From assembly GCF_032116555.1 (NCBI RefSeq), contig NZ_CP134949.1, forward strand, positions 1,674,001-1,738,000: 64,000 nucleotides of DNA, written 5' to 3'. Positions within the stretch are counted from its first letter, which is position 1. Every line of letters starts with the position of its first letter. The translations under genes and the position numbers were made by a program. The notes beneath the pieces were generated by a model, which searched no databases, had not been told where the DNA came from, and saw only the letters and a program-made list of their open reading frames with translations. This DNA is from Halobaculum sp. XH14. Lineage in GTDB: Archaea; Halobacteriota; Halobacteria; Halobacteriales; Haloferacaceae. Shown here in pieces: positions 4,812 to 14,825 of this stretch.

Positions 4812-4956
4812 TCTTGAGGGACCATTCCCGGGTACGCCTACTCAAACCGTCGGTTCGAATCCGGTCCAGCGCGGTGAGTGGCGAAGCGCCGAGCGAGCAT
4901 GACCGGATTCGGGATGGGAAGGGGCTTGCCGGGACCGCGATATGAAGCCGTCCCGG

Positions 4957-5619
4957 TCAGCCGTCGCCGAGCGCCCGCCCCACCAGCGTTCGTTCGGCCT
5001 TCCGGAGGTGCGCGCTCGCCGTCGCCTCCGAGACGTCGAGGGCCGCAGCGACCTCAGCAAGCGAGCCCTCGCGGGGGACCTCGTAGTAGCCCGCGGCCAT
5101 CGCCGTCCTGAGTGCCTCCCGCTGGCGACCCGTCAGATCCGTCCCGACCCCGCCGAGGCGGCGGTCCAGGCTGCCGACGTGGTGGACGGTCTTCCGGATC
5201 GACTCGGGCGTCTCCTCAAGCATCGCCCGGAGGTCGTCGGCTCGCCCCACGATGGTCATCCGCATCCGCGCCCGCTCGTCGTACACGATGGGGTGGGTGA
5301 CGACGAGGTTCCGTTCGGCGAACGCCTGCCGCCACGCACGATCGGCTTCCCGCGTCCGCTGTTCCACGTAGGCGTAGAACCGGCCCCGGTCGACGACGGC
5401 GAGTTCCCAGTCGCGGATCGACTCGACCTCGTCGATCGCGTCCCGATAGGCGTCGACGTCGCCGTGGACGAAAAACAGCGCGTACTCGAGGCGCTCCGTG
5501 TCGTGGAGCTGCCAGGCGACCAGCTCCTCGCGCCGGACGTCGTCGGTGGACGCGAGGAACTGCTGCATCGGATGCCGCATCCACTCGGGCTGGTCGAAGG
5601 TGACCTCGAGCGAGCGCAC
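4957..5619 (-). CDS. Bacterio-opsin activator-type HTH-10 transcriptional regulator
   Basis: A 220-residue haloarchaeal regulator of the Bat/HTH-10 class: an N-terminal alpha/beta sensor-like region (about 1-150) and a C-terminal helix-turn-helix beginning LTGRQREALRTAMAAGYYEVPR and ending with LDVSEATASAHLRKAE. No PAS or GAF domain is visible, so this is the short form. The GTG at 5619 is chosen because a TATTTAAA box lies 20-27 bases upstream; a TTG at 5625 would also be in frame. It is divergent from the cytochrome P450 and shares a very short intergenic region with it, making that gene a likely target (inference). Confidence 0.85.
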   Translation of the reverse strand: MRSLEVTFDQPEWMRHPMQQFLASTDDVRREELVAWQLHDTERLEYALFFVHGDVDAYRDAIDEVESIRDWELAVVDRGRFYAYVEQRTREADRAWRQAFAERNLVVTHPIVYDERARMRMTIVGRADDLRAMLEETPESIRKTVHHVGSLDRRLGGVGTDLTGRQREALRTAMAAGYYEVPREGSLAEVAAALDVSEATASAHLRKAERTLVGRALGDG

Positions 5620-5638
5620 GTGCAACAGTTTCGGATGC

Positions 5639-5646
5639 TATTTAAA
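5639..5646. promoter_or_regulatory. Shared TATA box of the divergent HTH and P450 genes
   Basis: TATTTAAA is the only AT-rich element in the 81 bases between the two start codons. On the minus strand (TTTAAATA) it sits 20 bases before the regulator GTG, right for a leaderless transcript. On the plus strand it would give the P450 a leader of about 30 nt. One near-symmetric element may serve both directions. Confidence 0.5.
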
Positions 5647-5700
5647 GAAGCTAGTGGCTTCGTGAGAACGACGACGGGGGCGGCCCGCCGACGTCCGAGT

Positions 5701-7098
5701 ATGGCCCAGTCAGATGCGACCACGGGCGGGGACGACTCCGGTCGCGACGACGCCGCCGCCACGGCGGACCTCGGCGAACTCCCTCCACCACCCGGGCCGG
5801 ACGGGCTCCCGGTCGTCGGCAACACGTTCCAGTTCCTCGGGGACGTGTGGGCGTTCTACGACACGCTCGCCGACCACGGCGACGTGGTCTCCTACCGCGT
5901 CGCCGGCTACGACTTCGTGACGCTGCTCCACCCGGACCACGTCGAACGGGTTCTGGTCGGCGAACCGGACCGGTTCCGGAAGGGCGACGTCCAGCGTCAG
6001 TCCGGGATCGAACTCCTGGAACGGGGGCTCCTCCTCTCGGAGGGCGAGCAGTGGCGGCACCAGCGGGAGACGCTCCAGCCGATGTTCTACCGGAACCGCG
6101 TCGAGTCGTTCGGCGAAACGATGGTCGAGGAGGCCGTAAGGACCGTCGATTCGTGGGACGACGGGACCGTACTGGAACCTCGGTCGACGTTCTCGGAACT
6201 CACGCTCCGGATCCTCTCGCGCACGCTCGTCGGGGCAGACCTCGGCGACGAGGACGACGTCGTCCGCGAGGCCGCGAGGGCCATCCAGGCCAGATCCGAC
6301 GCCGGCGCGCTCTCCTCGTTCCTGCCCCACTGGCTGCCGACGCCGCGGAACCGCCGGTTCAAACGCGCGACCGCCGAGTTCGACGACCTCGTCTCCGGGC
6401 TCATCGACGAACGGCGCGAGGAAGGGCCGGGCGAACACGAGGACCTGCTCTCCACGCTGGTTGCGGCCGGTGACGCACCGGAGGGACCGTCGGATCGGGA
6501 GATCCGCGACCAGTTGATGACGTTCCTGTTCGCCGGCCACGAGACGTCCTCGCTGGCGCTCACCTACGCCGTCTACGTGCTCACACAGCACCCGGACGTC
6601 ACAGCGCGGCTCGAGACCGAAGTCGACGACGCGCTGGGCGAGTCACCCCCGACGGTCGCGGACGTTCCCCGGCTGGAGTACACCGAACGGGTGATCCGGG
6701 AGACGCTCCGGCTGTACCCGCCGGCGTACGTCCTCTTCCGCCGGACGACCGAGGACGTCGCCTTCGACGGCCACCGCGTCCCCGCCGGGACGGAACTGAC
6801 GCTCCCCGCGTTCCGCCTCCACACCGACCCCCGATTCTGGGAGAACCCGGAGGCGTTCGACCCGTCGCGGTGGGCCGAGTCGGAGGGGAAGCGACCCGAG
6901 TACGCCTACTTCCCGTTCGGCGGCGGCCCGCGCCACTGCATCGGGATGCGGTTCGCGATGCTCGAACTGAAGATACTGCTGGCGACGTTCGTCCGGCGCG
7001 TCGGGTTCGAACTCGTCTCCGACCCGGACCTCTCGTTCGACGCCGCGGCGACGCTCCAGCCGAGCGATCCGCTCGAAGTCAGGGTGACCCGGCGTTAG
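5701..7098 (+). CDS. Cytochrome P450
   Basis: A 465-residue soluble P450 monooxygenase with no membrane anchor. The diagnostic parts are the I-helix [10 protein letters not shown], the ETLRLYPP K-helix (ExxR), and the heme loop [12 protein letters not shown] with Cys413 as thiolate ligand. The N terminus contains the [12 protein letters not shown] proline-rich segment. The family resembles CYP102/CYP174-like haloarchaeal enzymes; the substrate is unknown, and no ferredoxin or reductase gene lies next to it. The start chosen is the ATG of MAQSDA; the frame stays open upstream but overlaps the regulator promoter. Its TAG stop overlaps the TAA stop of the convergent pccX gene. Confidence 0.95.
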
Positions 7099-7352
7099 AA
7101 CCGGTCGGACCGCCCCGTCGCCGCCCAGGCGTCGGTCGGAGCGCCGTCCGGCACGCGCTCCGTGCGGCCCTGGAGCGACTCGGTTCGGCCCGCGAACGCC
7201 CACCGTTTGCCGTCCCAGGTCTCCGCTCCGTCGGCCGACTCCACGGCTGCGGCGGCTTCACGGTCGCGGAGGTGCGCGCTGACCGCGGCCGCGATGGCGG
7301 CGGCCTCGTGATCGTCGGCCGACTCCGGGATGGCGAGGTCGCGGGCGTCCAT
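7095..7352 (-). CDS. pccX: acc operon protein PccX-like
   Basis: An 85-residue Ala-rich acidic protein translated just after pccB: its ATG shares one base with the pccB TGA. It matches the small protein encoded with haloarchaeal acyl-CoA carboxylases (PccX in Haloferax mediterranei), which in that species is needed for full carboxylase activity. The mechanism is not known. Here a block [20 protein letters not shown] and a central WAFAGR segment are the only notable features. The last codons overlap the end of the P450 gene on the other strand. Confidence 0.75.
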
Positions 7353-8902
7353 CAGATGGGGATGTTGCCGTGTTTCTTGTCCGGCAGCGAGTCGCGCTTG
7401 GATTTGAGCATCTCAAGGTCGCTGACGAGCCGCGGCCGGGTTTCGGGCGGTTCGAGCACATCGTCGATGAACCCCTTGTCGGCGGCGGTGTACGGGTTGG
7501 CGAACTCCTCGCGGTACTCCTCGATGAGGTCGTCCCGGCGCGCGTCCGGGTCATCGGCCTCGTCGAGTTCGTCCGAGTAGAGGATGTTCACCGCGCCCTG
7601 GGGCCCCATCACGGCGATTTCGGCCGAGGGCCACGCGTAGTTCACGTCGCCGCCGATGTGCTTGGAAGCCATCACGTCGTAGGCGCCGCCGTACGCCTTC
7701 CGTGTGATGACCGTCAGGAGCGGGACGGTCGCCTCGGAGTACGCGTACAGTAGCTTCGCGCCGTGGCGGATGATGCCGTCGTGCTCCTGGTCGGTGCCGG
7801 GCATGAAGCCGGGGACGTCGACGAACGTGAGGATGGGAACGTTGAACGCGTCACAGAAGCGGACGAAGCGCGCGCCCTTCTCGCTGGCTTCGATGTCGAG
7901 CGTGCCGGCGTTCACGCGGGGCTGGTTCGCCACGATGCCGACGCTGTGGCCGTCGAGGCGGCCGAACCCGGTGACGATGTTCTTCGCGAAGTCGGCGTGC
8001 GTCTCGAAGAATGAGCCCTCGTCGACGACGCGGTCGATCACGTTCGTCATGTCGTAGGGCTTCCGCGGCTGGTCGGGGACGATGCCGTTCAGTTCGTCGT
8101 CGGCGCGCTCGGGGTCGTCCCAGGGGTCGACGCGGGGCGGGTCCTCGACGTTGTTCTGCGGCAGGTACGAGAGCAGGCGGCGCATGTCGTCCAGGGCGTC
8201 CTCCTCGCTCTCCTCGGCGAAGTGGGCGACCCCGGAGGTCGAGCCGTGGGTCGTCGCGCCGCCCAGTTCCTCGAAGGTGACCTCCTCGCCCGTGACGGTC
8301 TTGATGACCTCCGGGCCGGTGATGAACATGTGGCTGGTGTCTTTCACCATGAAGACGAAGTCCGTGATCGCGGGCGAGTACACCGCGCCGCCGGCGCAGG
8401 GCCCCATGATGGCCGACAGTTGGGGGATGACGCCCGACGCCTCGGTGTTCCGGCGAAAGATCTCCGCGTAGCCCGCGAGCGAGCCGACGCCCTCCTGGAT
8501 CCGCGCGCCCGCGGAGTCGTTGAGGCCGACGACGGGCGCGCCGACGTCCATCGCCTTGTCCATCACCTTGCAGACCTTCTCGGCGAACACCTCGCCGAGC
8601 GACCCGCCGAAGACGGTGAAGTCGTGGGCGAACACGAACGTCTTCCGGCCGTTCACCTCGCCGTAGCCGGTGACGACGCCGTCGCCGTAGATCCGCTTTT
8701 CCTCCATCCCGAACGTGTGCGTGTCGTGGGTCCGGAACTGGTCGAACTCGTGGAACGTGTCGTCGTCGAGGAAGTAGTCGATCCGCTCGCGTGCGGTCAT
8801 CTTCCCCTTCTCGTGCTGGCTCTCGATTCGGTCCTCGCCGCCGCCGAGCAGCGCCTCCGCACGTTTCTCGCGGAGTTCCTCGATGCGTTCTTCCATCGTC
8901 AT
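7352..8902 (-). CDS. pccB: Acetyl/propionyl-CoA carboxylase, carboxyltransferase subunit
   Basis: A 516-residue carboxyltransferase with the two crotonase-like halves of the PccB family: N-terminal [12 protein letters not shown] and [13 protein letters not shown], an oxyanion region [13 protein letters not shown], and a C-terminal half with [12 protein letters not shown] and [14 protein letters not shown]. It transfers carboxyl from PccA-bound biotin to acyl-CoA. Start chosen at the ATG of MTMEER; a second ATG two codons later is equally possible. It is followed without gap by pccX. An in-frame extension upstream runs through the 104-base gap into the sugar kinase and is not a gene. Confidence 0.95.
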
Positions 8903-9006: not shown

Positions 9007-9879
9007 TCAGGCGGTCTGCTCGTCGATGAACGCCTCGACGGCGGCCCACGAGACGTCCGCCCGCGCGCCGACGCATCCGGACGCGATGGCGCCGCAGGCG
9101 TTCGCCACCGCGAGCGCGCCCTCGCCCGTCTCGCCCTCGGCTCTCGCCGCGAGAAAGCCCGACGCGAAGGCGTCGCCCGCGCCGGTCGTGTCGAGCGGGT
9201 CGATGTGGTAGCCGTCGTGGCTGACGGTCCGGCCGTCGCGCCGCAGGTCCGCGCCGTCGGCACCCCGCGTGATCACGAGGTCCGCGTCCGCCCGAACCGC
9301 GTCCATCCCGGCACCGTTGACGAGGGCGGTCGCCTCGCGCTCGTTGAGAAAGAGCAGGTCCGCGAGCGGCAGCGTCCCCGAGAAGTCCCGATCCGCGAAC
9401 CGTCGGCCGGGGGAGAAACTGACCTCGACGCCCGCGGTCCGGCCACGCCGTGCGAGTTCGGCGGCGACCGCGGGCGGCTGGTTCGTGAGGTGGAGCAGGT
9501 CGACGTCGAGCGCGCCGTCCGGGAGGTCCGACGCGCGATACGCCTCGTTGGCCCCCTGGTTCGAGAGCATCATCACCTCGCCGCCGCCGTCGACGACGAG
9601 GTACTTGACCGCCGTCTCGCCGGCCGACTCGACGAGGTGCGTCTCGACGCCGGCCTCGGCCAGTTCCCTGCCCGCGAGCACGCCCGACTCGTCGCTCCCG
9701 ACCGACCCGAACAGCGACGCCTCGTGATCGAGCCCTTCGAGGTTCACGGCGACGTTCGCCGCGCTGCCGCCGCCGGCCTGGTGGTGCTGCTCGATGGTCA
9801 CCTCGCCGTCGGGCGCGGGGAGGCGGTCGACGCGGAGGGTGACGTCCCAGTTGACGTGACCCGCACAGAGCACCTGCAT
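9007..9879 (-). CDS. PfkB-family sugar kinase, candidate ribose-1-phosphate kinase
   Basis: A 290-residue ribokinase-fold enzyme. It opens with the PfkB signature region AGHVNWD and [11 protein letters not shown] and ends with the anion hole and catalytic base DTTGAGDAF (Asp236). Its ATG follows directly after the TAG of the ribose-1,5-bisphosphate isomerase gene, so the two are almost certainly co-translated. Halophilic archaea are known to use a PfkB-type kinase to make ribose-1,5-bisphosphate from ribose-1-phosphate in a non-carboxylating pentose bisphosphate pathway; this gene is placed to do so. Substrate assignment is inference; another nucleoside or sugar kinase activity remains possible. 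Confidence 0.85.
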
Positions 9880-10911
9880 CTACGGGCGCTCCGCTCCCCC
9901 GTCCGGTTCGACGTCGGCCAGACCGGCCCGGTCGTCCGCGCTCGCGGCCGATTCCTGCACCTCCCACGGCCGGGTCGCGGACTCGCCGAACAGTTCGCGC
10001 ATCAGCGTCACGACGCTCTCGGGCGGGAACTGGCCGCTCTCGGTGACGATCGCGTCGAGATATCTGGGCGGCGTCACGTCGAACGCCGGGTTCTCTACGG
10101 TCACCTCGCCGATCTCCGCGCGCTCCTCGGCCGAGATGACCTCCGCCTCGTCGCGCATCTCGATCTCGACCGTGTGGCCGGTGAGCGTGTCCGGGTGGAG
10201 CTTGATCGTCTGGGCGGCGACCATGATGGGGACGCCCCGTTCACGGGCGTTGACGGCCAGCCCCGAGGTGCCGATCTTGTTGATGACGCTCCCGTCGGCG
10301 GCGATGGCGTCCGCCCCGACGACGACGTGGTCGGTCTCGTCGAGGTACCGCCGTGCCGCCGAGTCGACGACGAGCGTCACGGGGACGCCCATCTCGCGGA
10401 GTTCCGACGCGGTGATGTGGCCCTGTCGGCGCGGGCGCGTCTCCTTCACGATGGCCGAGAGCTCCTTGCCCTGTTCGACGGCTGCTCGGACACACGAGAG
10501 CGCGTCCGTCGAGTGACAGTGGGTCAAAATGGTGTCGCCGTCGCGGAGGCGGTTCGCGCCGATCTCGCCGAGTTCGTCCTGGGCCGTGTCGAGCCGTTCG
10601 GCGAAGTCGGCCGCCGCGGTGGTCACTGCTGCCCTCACATCGTGGACGGTGTCGCCCTCCATCCGCCCGAGGACGTACCGGAGCGAGTTGGGGAGCGACA
10701 CCGCGGTCGGGCGCGTGTCGTAGAGGCGCCTGCCCGCGGCGCGCATCGTCGCGCGGAACGCGTCGGGATCGTCGGCGTCGACGGCGCGGGCCTGGGCCGC
10801 GAGCGCGTCCGCGGCCGCGGCCGCGATCGTCGCCGCGCCGCGCGTCTCCATCGTGGCGATGTCCTCCGCCGTCTCCTCGACGGACTCGTGGAGGTCGGCA
10901 TCTCCGGGCAT
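9880..10911 (-). CDS. Ribose-1,5-bisphosphate isomerase (aIF2B/E2B2 family)
   Basis: A 343-residue member of the eIF-2B-like/M1Pi superfamily. The catalytic pair of Thermococcus R15P isomerase (Cys133 and Asp202 in that protein) is found at Cys132 in HCHST and Asp201 in GADAI, followed by NKIGTSGLA. It converts ribose-1,5-bisphosphate to ribulose-1,5-bisphosphate. It is the first gene of a two-gene unit with a sugar kinase. No RuBisCO gene is in the window. Translation-initiation-factor annotation, frequent for this family, is not supported given the Cys/Asp pair. A CTTTATCC promoter box lies 22 bases before the ATG. Confidence 0.85.
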
Positions 10912-10932
10912 GACCTCGGCGTAGGCGACGCC

Positions 10933-10940
10933 GGATAAAG
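10933..10940 (-). promoter_or_regulatory. TATA box of the isomerase-kinase unit
   Basis: CTTTATCC on the minus strand lies 22-29 bases before the isomerase ATG, consistent with a leaderless transcript. The divergent acyl-CoA synthetase starts 100 bases away on the other strand, so the regulatory region is shared. Confidence 0.5.
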
Positions 10941-11010
10941 AGTGTCCGGGTGACGGGCGCGGATCCGAACGGAGGGTGGTTTCATTGTCACGTCCCGGCT
11001 ACGGGACGCC

Positions 11011-12687
11011 ATGACGTGGCACGTCGAACTCGACTACCAGGACTACGAGACCGCCCGCGAGGAGTTCGAGTGGACCGTCCCGGCCGAGTACAACCTCGCA
11101 CACGACCTCCTCCGAAAACACGAGGACGTCCACCGACCCGCACTCCACCAGTCGTACCCCGACGGCCGCGAGCGGACGTACTCGTTCCGCGAACTCGACG
11201 ACCTGTCCGACCGGGTCGCCCGCGGGCTGGCGAACCGGGGCGTGGGGCGCGGGGACCGGGTCGGCGTCGTGCTCCCGCAGGTGCCCGCCAACCCGCTCAC
11301 GCACCTCGCCTGCTGGAAACTCGGCGCGGTCTCGATTCCGCTCTCGGTGCTGTTCGGCCCGGACGGGCTCGAATCGAGGCTCGGGGACGCCGGCGCGGTC
11401 GCGGTGGTGGCCGACGAGGAGGTGCGCGACGCGGTGTCGACCGCCGTGGGGAACTGCCGGGGGCTCGACCGTCACGTCGAGGTCCGGTGGCGCGGTGAGG
11501 CGAGTGAGGACGCCCCGGCGTGGAACGCTGAAGACGGCGACGACGGCCCGGACGAGCGCTTCGCCACGCTCCTGGGGGAACCCGCCGGGTTCGACAGGGT
11601 CGAGACCGGGCCCGACACGCCCGCGGTCGTGCTCTACACGAGCGGCTCGACCGGCCCGCCGAAGGGCGTCCTCCACACTCACGACGTCTGGGTCGGCCAC
11701 TGTCCGGCGTTCTTCATGTACGTCGAACGCGACGTCGAGGGGACGTACTGGACGCCGGCCGACTGGGCCTGGATCGGCGCGCTCGGCGACCTGCTGTTCC
11801 CCGCCTGGCACTACGGGCAGCCGGTCGTCGGCCACCCGATGGGCCCGTTCGACCCCGAAACGGCGGTCGAACTCATGGATGAATACGACGTCACCGACGC
11901 GTTCCTGCCGCCGACCGCGATCCGGATGCTGATGAGCCACGGGACGGGGTCGGTTGACCTCTCGCTGGAGACCGTCTGTTCGGGTGGCGAACCGCTCACG
12001 CCGGAAATCCTGGAGTGGGCCGACGACGAAATGGACGGCCTCGTCGTCAACGAGCTGTACGGCCAGACGGAGGCGAACCTGCTCGTGACGAACTGCCGGG
12101 ACTGGTTTTCCGGGCGTGCCGGGAGCATGGGTAAACCCGTCCCCGGCCACGAGGTCGCCATCGTCGACACGGAGACCGGGGAACGAAAACCGCCCGGCGA
12201 GGTGGGAGCGATCGCCGTGCGTCGGGCCGACGACCCGGTCGTGTTCTCGGAGTACTGGAACGCCCCGGAACGGACCGCCGCGGCGACGCTCGACGGCTGG
12301 CATCTCACCGGCGACCTCGGTTCGCGCGACGAGGACGGCTACCTGTGGTTCAAATCCCGCGACGACGACGTCATCATCACCGCGGGCTACCGGGTCGGTC
12401 CCGGCGAGGTCGAGGGCGCGATCCTGAACCACGCCGACGTCGAACAGGCGGGCGTGATCGGCGTCCCCGACGACACCCGCGGGGAACTGATCAAGGCGTT
12501 CGTGGAACCGGCCGCGGGGGTCGACCCCGACGACGAACTCCGGGAGGAGATCCGTTCGCTCGTCCGCGACCGGCTCGCCAAACACGAGTACCCGCGCGAG
12601 ATCGAGTTCCTCGCGGGGCTCCCGCAGACGACGACCGGAAAGATCCGTCGCCGGGCGCTCCGCGACCGGGAGGGGAGCGGCGACTGA
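11011..12687 (+). CDS. AMP-forming acyl-CoA synthetase
   Basis: A 558-residue adenylate-forming enzyme that activates a carboxylic acid to acyl-CoA through an acyl-AMP. It has the ATP loop YTSGSTGPPKG (209-219), the LYGQTEAN motif, the hinge region ending in a FKSRDDDVI segment, and the catalytic Lys544 in TTTGKIRR. The architecture is that of the acetyl-/medium-chain acyl-CoA synthetase group. Chain length specificity cannot be told. It is transcribed divergently from the ribose-bisphosphate genes and is convergent with the methionine synthase genes 33 bases downstream. Confidence 0.92.
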   Translation: MTWHVELDYQDYETAREEFEWTVPAEYNLAHDLLRKHEDVHRPALHQSYPDGRERTYSFRELDDLSDRVARGLANRGVGRGDRVGVVLPQVPANPLTHLACWKLGAVSIPLSVLFGPDGLESRLGDAGAVAVVADEEVRDAVSTAVGNCRGLDRHVEVRWRGEASEDAPAWNAEDGDDGPDERFATLLGEPAGFDRVETGPDTPAVVLYTSGSTGPPKGVLHTHDVWVGHCPAFFMYVERDVEGTYWTPADWAWIGALGDLLFPAWHYGQPVVGHPMGPFDPETAVELMDEYDVTDAFLPPTAIRMLMSHGTGSVDLSLETVCSGGEPLTPEILEWADDEMDGLVVNELYGQTEANLLVTNCRDWFSGRAGSMGKPVPGHEVAIVDTETGERKPPGEVGAIAVRRADDPVVFSEYWNAPERTAAATLDGWHLTGDLGSRDEDGYLWFKSRDDDVIITAGYRVGPGEVEGAILNHADVEQAGVIGVPDDTRGELIKAFVEPAAGVDPDDELREEIRSLVRDRLAKHEYPREIEFLAGLPQTTTGKIRRRALRDREGSGD

Positions 12688-12720: not shown

Positions 12721-13806
12721 TCAGTCGTCTGCCGGTGCCGTCGTCCCGTCGGCGGCCGGAACCTCGATCTCGCCGGCGTCGAGTTCCGCTTCGAGCTCCC
12801 GGGTCGCCCGCACGAGGTTCTCCATCTTGCCGTAGGCGATCTCGCGGGGGAGCAGTTTCAGCCCGCAGTCGGGCGAGACGGTGAGTTTCTCGGGCGGGAC
12901 GACCTTCAGGCCCTCGCGGATGTTCGCCTTGATCTCCTCGACCGACTCGACCTCGGCGACGTGGGCGTCGACGACGCCGAGCGCGAGGTCGGGCGCGAAC
13001 GCGCCGTCCGCGAAGACGTCGATCTGCTCGTAGTCGCCGTTACAGAGTTCGACGTCGAACTCGTCGATCGGGTAGTCGTTGATCTCGGGGTAGACGCGCG
13101 AGTAGTCGCCGTAGCAGACGTGGAGCCCGATTCGGACGTCCTCGGGGACGCCGGCCACGATACGGTCGAGACACTCGCCGACGATGGCGTGGTCGTCGGG
13201 CGTCGTCGCCAGCGCCGGCTCGTCAATCTGGACGTAGCGCGCGCCGGCCTCGACGAGCTTCTCGACCTCCTCGTTGACGAGGTCCGCCAGATCGTACGCG
13301 AGCGCCTCGTTGTCGTCGTACGCCTCGTTGAACGACCAGTTCGCCAGCGTGTACGGGCCGGTGATTGGGACCTTCACCGGGCGCGAGGCGACCGCGTCGG
13401 TGAACGCGAACTCGTCGACGAGCCACGGCTCGTCGTACTCGACCTCGTCCACCACGGAGGGCTTGTCGAAGTAGTTGTGGCCCCACACCTTCACGGGACC
13501 GTTGAACTCGTAGCCCTCGATGCGCTCGGCGAAGAACTCGACCATCTCCTCGCGGCGCATCTCGCCGTCGACGACGGTGTCGAGGCCAGCCCGCTCGTGT
13601 TCGTGTGTGATGACGCGGCAGGCGTCGTCGTGGGCCTCCGTGAGGTCCTCGGCGTCGAACTTAGAGTCCGAGTCCTCGGCGAGGTCGCTCGCGCGGTTCA
13701 GCCACTTGGGCTTCGGATACGAGCCGACGACCGTCGTGAGCAGGAAGTGCTCGTTCGGGTGGTCCTCGGGTCGGAACCCCTCGCGGTTCTCCGGGTTCCG
13801 GCTCAC
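12721..13806 (-). CDS. metE: MetE-type methionine synthase, catalytic (zinc) protein
   Basis: A 361-residue protein equivalent to the catalytic C-terminal barrel of cobalamin-independent methionine synthase. Zinc and homocysteine ligands are present: His229 and Cys231 in GLHVCYGD, and Cys314 in PDCGLKLLP; VGSYPKP and QIDEPAL are family signatures. Being only the core barrel, it may use a methyl donor other than polyglutamyl-methyltetrahydrofolate, as known for archaeal core-MetE proteins. Start is the GTG that overlaps the upstream TGA (GTGA). It is the second gene of a two-gene operon with another MetE-fold protein. Confidence 0.9.
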   Translation of the reverse strand: MSRNPENREGFRPEDHPNEHFLLTTVVGSYPKPKWLNRASDLAEDSDSKFDAEDLTEAHDDACRVITHEHERAGLDTVVDGEMRREEMVEFFAERIEGYEFNGPVKVWGHNYFDKPSVVDEVEYDEPWLVDEFAFTDAVASRPVKVPITGPYTLANWSFNEAYDDNEALAYDLADLVNEEVEKLVEAGARYVQIDEPALATTPDDHAIVGECLDRIVAGVPEDVRIGLHVCYGDYSRVYPEINDYPIDEFDVELCNGDYEQIDVFADGAFAPDLALGVVDAHVAEVESVEEIKANIREGLKVVPPEKLTVSPDCGLKLLPREIAYGKMENLVRATRELEAELDAGEIEVPAADGTTAPADD

Positions 13807-14825
13807 GCCTCCACCCCCTCGACGGCGGCGAGGCGAGCGCCCTCGGCGAGCGCGCCGAGCTTCTCCAGATGCCTGTTCGTCGGCAGGTAGAACGGCTCCG
13901 TGTTGTAGCTCACGTACGTCGTCTCGAACGTCTGGCCGGGTACCTGCTCGTGAACCCACTCGACGCGTTCCGCGACCGTTTCCGGCTCCTCGACGAGCGT
14001 GTTCTGGCCGTCGACGACGCCGAGCGCGACGTCGGATTTCGTCCCGAGTTCGTTGATGCATTCGAGGTTCCGCTCGCGGTCTGCGGCGACGAAGTCGAAG
14101 CCGATCGCGTCCACGTCGGCGTCCATGAGGTGCGCGTACGGCTTCTCCGCGAACGCCTCCCAGTACGTGTGGACGACGACCTCGGCGTCCGTGGCGGCCA
14201 CGACCGTATCAATCGCCTCGCTCGCCCGCTCGTCCGCCCCGTCCGCCGGCGCGTTCGTGACGAAGGAGGGCTCCAGCAGGAACAGGGTCGCGTGGTCCGG
14301 GAACTCGGCGACCTCGCCGGCGAGGAACTCCGCGACGGCGGCGAGGAACTCGGCGTCGTCCCCGTAGTGCTCGTCGGTCGCCAGGTCGGCGAGCGTGTAC
14401 GGGCCCGGCAGCACGGCCTGGAGCAGCGAGCCTGATTCGTCGCCGAGCAGGTCCGCGGCCGCGGCCAGTTCGGCGGCGACGTCGCCCGAGGGGGTCAGTT
14501 CGCCGACGACCCGCAGATCACGGTAGAAGTTGTTGTTGTCGTAGTAGCGAACGATGCCGCCCGTCTCGACGTTCCCGTGGACGGTCAGCGGGTGCGCGAG
14601 CATGTCGTCCCAGCGGCCCTGTCCCTCGACGATCCGGTCCAGCTCCGCGTCCCGCTGGTCGTCGACGAGTTCGGCGCGAACGCGGTCGTAGGCGGCCGCG
14701 ATCTCGCCGCCCTCGCCGCCGGAGACGAGATCGCCCTTCTGGTGGCCCTTCAGCTCGGAGAGTTCGTCCTTCGACCGGTCGGGGAGCGGGTACAGCCCCG
14801 GCGTGGTCGAGACTACGTCGGTCAT
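13803..14825 (-). CDS. MetE-fold partner protein lacking zinc ligands
   Basis: A 340-residue protein with UROD/MetE barrel features (ending YVSYNTEPFYLPTN), cotranscribed with the catalytic MetE. The zinc-binding His-x-Cys is changed to HTY in VVVHTYWEAF and no second Cys is seen, so it probably does not activate homocysteine. It may bind the methyl donor or a carrier (inference). The first ATG at 14825 is preferred because a TATTAT promoter box lies 27-32 bases upstream; a GTG one codon earlier is possible. Annotated in databases commonly as a methionine synthase too. Confidence 0.8.
   Translation of the reverse strand: MTDVVSTTPGLYPLPDRSKDELSELKGHQKGDLVSGGEGGEIAAAYDRVRAELVDDQRDAELDRIVEGQGRWDDMLAHPLTVHGNVETGGIVRYYDNNNFYRDLRVVGELTPSGDVAAELAAAADLLGDESGSLLQAVLPGPYTLADLATDEHYGDDAEFLAAVAEFLAGEVAEFPDHATLFLLEPSFVTNAPADGADERASEAIDTVVAATDAEVVVHTYWEAFAEKPYAHLMDADVDAIGFDFVAADRERNLECINELGTKSDVALGVVDGQNTLVEEPETVAERVEWVHEQVPGQTFETTYVSYNTEPFYLPTNRHLEKLGALAEGARLAAVEGVEA

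What the first reader, a model, noticed from the sequence alone, without database searches (positions are those of the whole stretch)
9007..10911. Kinase-isomerase pair of the halophilic pentose bisphosphate pathway
The isomerase keeps the Cys132 and Asp201 needed for ribose-1,5-bisphosphate isomerisation, and its gene ends exactly at the ATG of a PfkB kinase. That is the expected layout if the kinase makes ribose-1,5-bisphosphate from ribose-1-phosphate (released from nucleosides). No RuBisCO or phosphorylase gene is in the window, so downstream steps lie elsewhere. The unit is divergent from an acyl-CoA synthetase.
Basis: partly seen in the sequence, partly recalled or inferred. Interest (0 to 1): 0.65.

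Follow-up and report, generated by a model that had tools for sequence, protein, structure and literature searches.

The report
Nucleoside-sugar salvage pair in a haloarchaeon
Two adjoining genes of a salt-loving archaeon very probably encode the kinase and the isomerase that turn the ribose of nucleosides into ribulose bisphosphate; the genome also holds the phosphatase and aldolase of a pathway published in 2022, so this is an ordinary new example of a known route.

Summary
On the minus strand an isomerase gene (10911-9880) ends in TAG directly before the ATG of a PfkB kinase (9879-9007). The isomerase passes NCBIfam's ribose-1,5-bisphosphate isomerase model (470 bits, cut-off 314). [quoted passage not shown]

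The missing steps lie elsewhere in the same genome: a guanosine-phosphorylase-type gene, and an adjacent RuBP 5-phosphatase and Ru1P aldolase (401 and 368 bits, over cut-off). The single RuBisCO-family gene is a RuBisCO-like protein (267 bits to form III, cut-off 497). [quoted passage not shown] 2022 (PMC9700705), not the RuBisCO version.

In 292 haloarchaeal genomes, RuBP phosphatase never occurs without the isomerase (96 of 96); phosphatase and RuBisCO are near-alternatives among isomerase holders (87, 83, 9 both, 12 neither of 191).

New member of a known kind; low interest. Substrates are inferred from families, not assayed. Leads: possible double use in methylthioribose salvage, a conserved DUF63 operon gene in relatives, and 47 genomes with the kinase but no isomerase.

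The parts
9880..10911 (-). Ribose-1,5-bisphosphate isomerase, 343 aa; Cys132 and Asp201 kept; first gene of the pair
   Evidence: TIGR00511 470 bits against cut-off 314; 5yfj relatives E 9e-90; Cys132 kept in 34 of 36 aligned orthologues (2 gaps), Asp201 in 36 of 36
9007..9879 (-). [quoted passage not shown] starts directly after the isomerase stop
   Evidence: NF053626 355.9 bits against cut-off 330; PF00294 E 4.9e-42; TAG|ATG junction and GAGDAF motif
10912..11010 (.). 99-bp region between the divergent starts; TTTATC lies 23-28 bp upstream of the isomerase ATG, where a haloarchaeal TATA box of a leaderless transcript would be (consensus recalled)
   Evidence: sequence printed; no promoter was tested
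11011..12687 (+). divergent acyl-CoA-synthetase-like ORF, 558 aa (neighbour, not thought to belong to the pathway)
   Evidence: identity read by eye, not scanned; not found beside the kinase in the 78 loci
7352..8902 (-). acyl-CoA carboxylase-like gene, 516 aa, downstream on the same strand, 104 bp after the kinase (neighbour)
   Evidence: same order and 91% identity in Halobaculum litoreum L011; also near the isomerase, on the other strand, in L065; identity read by eye, not scanned

Best explanation
[quoted passage not shown] Phosphorolysis of nucleosides (guanosine by preference) releases ribose-1-phosphate. The PfkB kinase phosphorylates it at C5 with ATP to ribose-1,5-bisphosphate. The isomerase (Cys132/Asp201) converts that to ribulose-1,5-bisphosphate. 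A HAD phosphatase encoded about 720 kb away removes the C5 phosphate, and a class II aldolase encoded next to it cleaves ribulose-1-phosphate into DHAP and glycolaldehyde. Shown here: gene layout, family membership over curated cut-offs, presence of the other genes, absence of a form III RuBisCO at cut-off. Inferred: substrates and flux, from enzymes assayed by Sato et al. 2022 in related species.
For: Both proteins pass equivalog models. The same genome holds RuBP 5-phosphatase (401/330 bits) and Ru1P aldolase (368/300) as neighbours overlapping by 4 bp, and a phosphorylase (L002) 70% identical to the one beside isomerase and kinase in L104. RuBisCO III is below cut-off, NMP phosphorylase too. 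In L107 phosphatase, aldolase, isomerase and kinase stand in one row, all four over cut-off. In 292 genomes phosphatase occurs only with the isomerase, 96 of 96; the kinase is in 186 of 191 isomerase holders against 47 of 101 others. Every enzyme of the route was assayed in relatives (PMC9700705).
Against: No activity was measured. The kinase clears its cut-off by only 26 bits, and kinases in isomerase-free loci score higher. No glycolaldehyde reductase of the published type was found among three of four Fe-ADH_2 proteins scanned, although PMC9700705 says that half of the genomes with that gene lack the pathway and that other routes may exist. The phosphorylase, phosphatase and aldolase are not near the pair in this genome. 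The association statistics ignore ancestry.
Confidence: 0.9

Rival explanations
1. RuBisCO-type pentose bisphosphate pathway: RuBP made by the pair is carboxylated by a RuBisCO encoded elsewhere in the genome.
For: One RuBisCO_large-family gene exists (PF00016, E 1e-71), and 83 of 191 isomerase-bearing relatives have form III RuBisCO without the phosphatase.
Against: That gene scores 267 bits to form III (cut-off 497) and 496 to OiaX (cut-off 700), lies between an Asp/Glu-racemase-family gene and an OiaK-like kinase, and its nearest solved relative is a RuBisCO-like protein. The phosphatase and aldolase are present.
Confidence: 0.02
2. The isomerase is a methylthioribose-1-phosphate isomerase (MtnA) of methionine salvage, and the kinase beside it is unrelated.
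For: The genome has an MTA phosphorylase (280 bits, cut-off 275) and no other IF-2B protein with the catalytic Cys. Both enzyme kinds share the Cys/Asp pair (recalled).
Against: TIGR00512 200 bits against cut-off 279, TIGR00511 470 against 314. Orthologues stand beside the same kinase in 37 of 78 loci.
Confidence: 0.04
3. The kinase is a ribokinase or nucleoside kinase that feeds another route; the pairing with the isomerase is incidental.
For: PfkB substrates are hard to predict. The nearest solved relatives are ribokinases (E 2.7e-23). Kinases of the same model occur in 47 genomes without the isomerase.
Against: Ribokinase model 100 bits against 300, nucleoside kinase 62 against 450, 1-phosphofructokinase 53 against 292. 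Isomerase near the kinase in 37 of 78 loci, spacing -10 to +100 bp in 25 of 36 measured.
Confidence: 0.03

Closest known systems
Non-carboxylating pentose bisphosphate pathway of halophilic archaea (Sato et al. 2022, PMC9700705; Halopiger xanaduensis, Haloterrigena turkmenica, Halobacterium salinarum, Halorubrum lacusprofundi)
   Same: Same isomerase and kinase families, with RuBP phosphatase, Ru1P aldolase and a guanosine-phosphorylase-type gene in the genome and neither form III RuBisCO nor NMP phosphorylase at cut-off
   Different: Genes are split into a 2-gene pair, a distant 2-gene pair and a lone phosphorylase. Halorubrum-type L107 has four genes in a row, and 20 typed genomes have a gap of about 1 kb between isomerase and kinase, filled by a DUF63 gene in the one looked at (L104). 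No glycolaldehyde reductase of the published type found.
Pentose bisphosphate pathway of Thermococcus kodakarensis (ADP-R1P kinase, R15P isomerase, RuBisCO)
   Same: Same isomerase family; same logic from nucleoside to RuBP (PMC9700705)
   Different: The kinase scores 76 bits against 500 for the ADP-dependent Thermococcales kinase; no form III RuBisCO or NMP phosphorylase at cut-off
MtnA methylthioribose-1-phosphate isomerase
   Same: Same IF-2B fold family and an equivalent catalytic Cys/Asp pair (recalled)
   Different: Score under the MtnA cut-off (200 against 279)

Membership tests
Ribose-1,5-bisphosphate isomerase (TIGR00511) | Score over the curated equivalog cut-off | tested here: met
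   470.2 against 314.1
Ribose-1,5-bisphosphate isomerase (TIGR00511) | Catalytic Cys and Asp (Cys133/Asp202 in the Thermococcus enzyme, recalled) | tested here: met
   Cys132, Asp201
Ribose-1,5-bisphosphate isomerase (TIGR00511) | Forms RuBP from R15P | not testable with these tools
   no assay
[quoted passage not shown]
   355.9 against 330
[quoted passage not shown]
   no assay
Non-carboxylating pentose bisphosphate pathway | RuBP phosphatase and Ru1P aldolase in the genome | tested here: met
   NF053830 401/330 and NF053831 368/300, neighbouring genes
Non-carboxylating pentose bisphosphate pathway | No RuBisCO and no NMP phosphorylase | tested here: met
   form III 266-267 against 497; TIGR03327 31 against 535
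Non-carboxylating pentose bisphosphate pathway | Guanosine phosphorylase of the operon type (Urdpase1) | tested here: met
   L002 70% identical to the L104 operon gene; the same query matches near the kinase in many loci; substrate not testable
Non-carboxylating pentose bisphosphate pathway | Glycolaldehyde reductase of the VNG_6270G type (NF053832) | tested here: inconclusive
   best of three scanned Fe-ADH_2 proteins 78 against 550; one further weak hit not scanned; PMC9700705 found the gene in only ten species
RuBisCO-type pentose bisphosphate pathway | Form III RuBisCO | tested here: not met
   265.9 bits against 497.45
MtnA (methionine salvage) | Score over the TIGR00512 cut-off | tested here: not met
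   199.7 against 279

The most novel reading that the evidence does not exclude
The isomerase and the distant Ru1P aldolase work in two routes: besides ribose-1,5-bisphosphate they salvage the sugar of methylthioadenosine and 5'-deoxyadenosine (MTA phosphorylase, then isomerisation of the methylthio- or 5-deoxy-ribose-1-phosphate, then aldol cleavage to DHAP and an aldehyde). It would be an archaeal DHAP shunt run on borrowed pentose bisphosphate enzymes. The genome has the phosphorylase, lacks a separate Cys-bearing isomerase, and the published aldolase accepts several aldehydes (PMC9700705).
Probability: 0.08. Interest if true: 0.5.

Novelty: new member of a known kind. Interest (0 to 1): 0.15.

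Why it matters
Little for this locus alone: it adds another haloarchaeon to a pathway published in 2022 and shows that the genome's RuBisCO-family gene is not the next step. The survey widens the published distribution (63 species) to 292 genomes and agrees that RuBP phosphatase and RuBisCO are mostly alternatives. It leaves clear open groups: 47 genomes with the kinase but no isomerase, and 12 with the isomerase but neither RuBP-consuming enzyme.

Tried and rejected
RuBisCO as the next step: rejected on model scores and neighbours. MtnA identity: rejected on scores, kept as a possible minor double role. DeoC proximity as a mark of isomerase-free kinase loci: 24 of 41 loci without isomerase against 3 of 37 with it looked specific (whose script stopped with an error after printing this table), but deoC is over cut-off in 287 of 292 genomes and lies 114-616 bp from the isomerase in 20 of 20 typed genomes that have both, so the contrast partly reflects which species the scan returned. 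A kinase tree did not split isomerase-linked from other kinases into two clades, though the label is clustered (8 changes, shuffled mean 24). A search for papers naming Halobaculum with 'pentose bisphosphate' found none. Structure prediction was not used: the family hits are clear.

Counting notes. In one search the kinase set uses a natural gap (E up to 1e-80, 233 genomes) instead of the tool's tally over cut-off (229), and the phosphatase set (96) includes two genomes just under cut-off (328 and 319 bits). 'No isomerase' can mean that a contig end cut the locus. 72 rows entered the tree: 71 of 78 loci plus the window; 7 loci were left out for a missing start or stop or an odd length. The 20 genomes were picked because all three places were printed in capped lists, not at random. 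In one search an acidity filter hid some real genes; two gaps were then read with the ORF listing.

Full report
What is there. On the minus strand, 10911-9880 encodes a 343-aa isomerase and 9879-9007 a 290-aa PfkB kinase; the isomerase stop TAG is followed directly by the kinase ATG. The isomerase matches TIGR00511 (ribose-1,5-bisphosphate isomerase) with 470 bits against a cut-off of 314, and MtnA with 200 against 279. [quoted passage not shown] other sugar-kinase models stay far below their cut-offs. [quoted passage not shown] one carries Asn at the Asp position) and, for the kinase, ribokinases (E 2.7e-23).

The rest of the pathway. The window is C1:1674001-1738000 of a 3.68-Mb genome, 99.9% complete. 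At C1 about 2405.7-2407.1 kb a HAD protein and a class II aldolase, overlapping by 4 bp, pass the models for RuBP 5-phosphatase (401/330) and Ru1P aldolase (368/300). Four PNP/UDP-phosphorylase-family genes were found, none in the window. L002 is the guanosine-phosphorylase type: 70% identical to the gene beside isomerase and kinase in L104, against 42% and 35% for two others. L003 is an MTA phosphorylase (280/275). The single RuBisCO-family gene (L006) scores 267 against 497 for form III and 496 against 700 for OiaX, and lies between an Asp/Glu-racemase-family gene and an OiaK-like kinase. Its nearest solved relative is a RuBisCO-like protein (3nwr). NMP phosphorylase is absent at cut-off. 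A glycolaldehyde reductase of the published type was not found among three of four Fe-ADH_2 hits scanned.

What is known. Sato et al. 2022 (PMC9700705; read here: outline, parts 1-3 of 8 of the text, the Discussion, and found passages) assayed an isomerase (Htur_0571), a kinase (Halxa_1682, best of 85 acceptors on ribose-1-phosphate), a guanosine phosphorylase, an RuBP phosphatase, an Ru1P aldolase and a glycolaldehyde reductase. They reported rbsK in an operon with the isomerase in 8 of 8 genomes. The finding is another case of that layout.

Comparative evidence. A scan of genome contigs with the kinase gave 78 loci. 37 carry the isomerase nearby; of 36 measurable spacings 17 are -10 to +15 bp and 25 are -10 to +100 bp. 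The best relative, Halobaculum litoreum, has isomerase, kinase and carboxylase in the same order. In 292 haloarchaeal genomes at least 90% complete (cross-table typed), 191 have the isomerase. Of these, 87 have the phosphatase alone, 83 form III RuBisCO alone, 9 both and 12 neither. All 96 genomes with the phosphatase have the isomerase. Two genomes have RuBisCO without the isomerase. The kinase is in 186 of 191 isomerase holders and in 47 of 101 others. Fisher p-values are tiny but ignore ancestry. In L107 the four genes stand in one row.

Limits. The kinase model cannot tell pathway use: Haloferax kinases without a neighbouring isomerase score 400-402, and the tree mixes both kinds. The Cys/Asp pair does not separate R15P from MTR1P isomerases (recalled). 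The window's isomerase is the only one of three IF-2B-family proteins found in the genome that keeps the Cys. With an MTA phosphorylase and no MtnA, a second role in methylthioribose or 5-deoxyribose salvage is not excluded; it is the most novel reading left, at low probability.

Verdict. Observation confirmed, interpretation supported, downstream steps located and shown not to be a form III RuBisCO. New member of a known kind; low interest.

Noticed in passing
L006 325-3728 (G000:C1 about 2951.9-2955.3 kb): RuBisCO-like protein (OiaX-like, 496 of 700 bits) between an Asp/Glu-racemase-family gene and an OiaK-like kinase (458 of 700): perhaps a sugar-acid pathway related to apionate breakdown. 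Similar sub-cut-off RuBisCO-family hits (160-298 bits, this genome's included) occur in 10 of 292 genomes.
   Followed up: partly
L104 2159-2980 (and the iso-kinase gaps of 20 genomes typed): A DUF63 membrane-protein gene (PF01889) sits between isomerase and kinase in L104; gaps of 930-1081 bp in 20 of 20 typed genomes suggest it is common. Its role is unknown; a transporter for nucleosides is a guess. Not named in PMC9700705's main text. The gene was read in L104 only.
   Followed up: partly
292 genomes: 47 genomes have the kinase but no isomerase; 12 have the isomerase with neither RuBP phosphatase nor RuBisCO; 9 have both; 2 have RuBisCO without the isomerase. The first group matches a puzzle that PMC9700705 left open.
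   Followed up: no
L050 and L073 (Halomarina halobia): One genome has two kinase copies: one beside the isomerase and a RuBisCO-family gene, the other with a guanosine-phosphorylase-type gene and deoC but no isomerase. A natural pair for asking what the isomerase-free kinase does.
   Followed up: no
L026, L041, L104, L105 and others: deoC (deoxyribose-phosphate aldolase) is often divergent from, or close to, this gene neighbourhood, with or without the isomerase; in the window's genome it is 246 kb away.
   Followed up: partly
window 4942-7098 (+) and 12721-14061 (-): Read by eye only: a cytochrome P450-like coding region and a MetE-like methionine synthase gene flank the neighbourhood.
   Followed up: no
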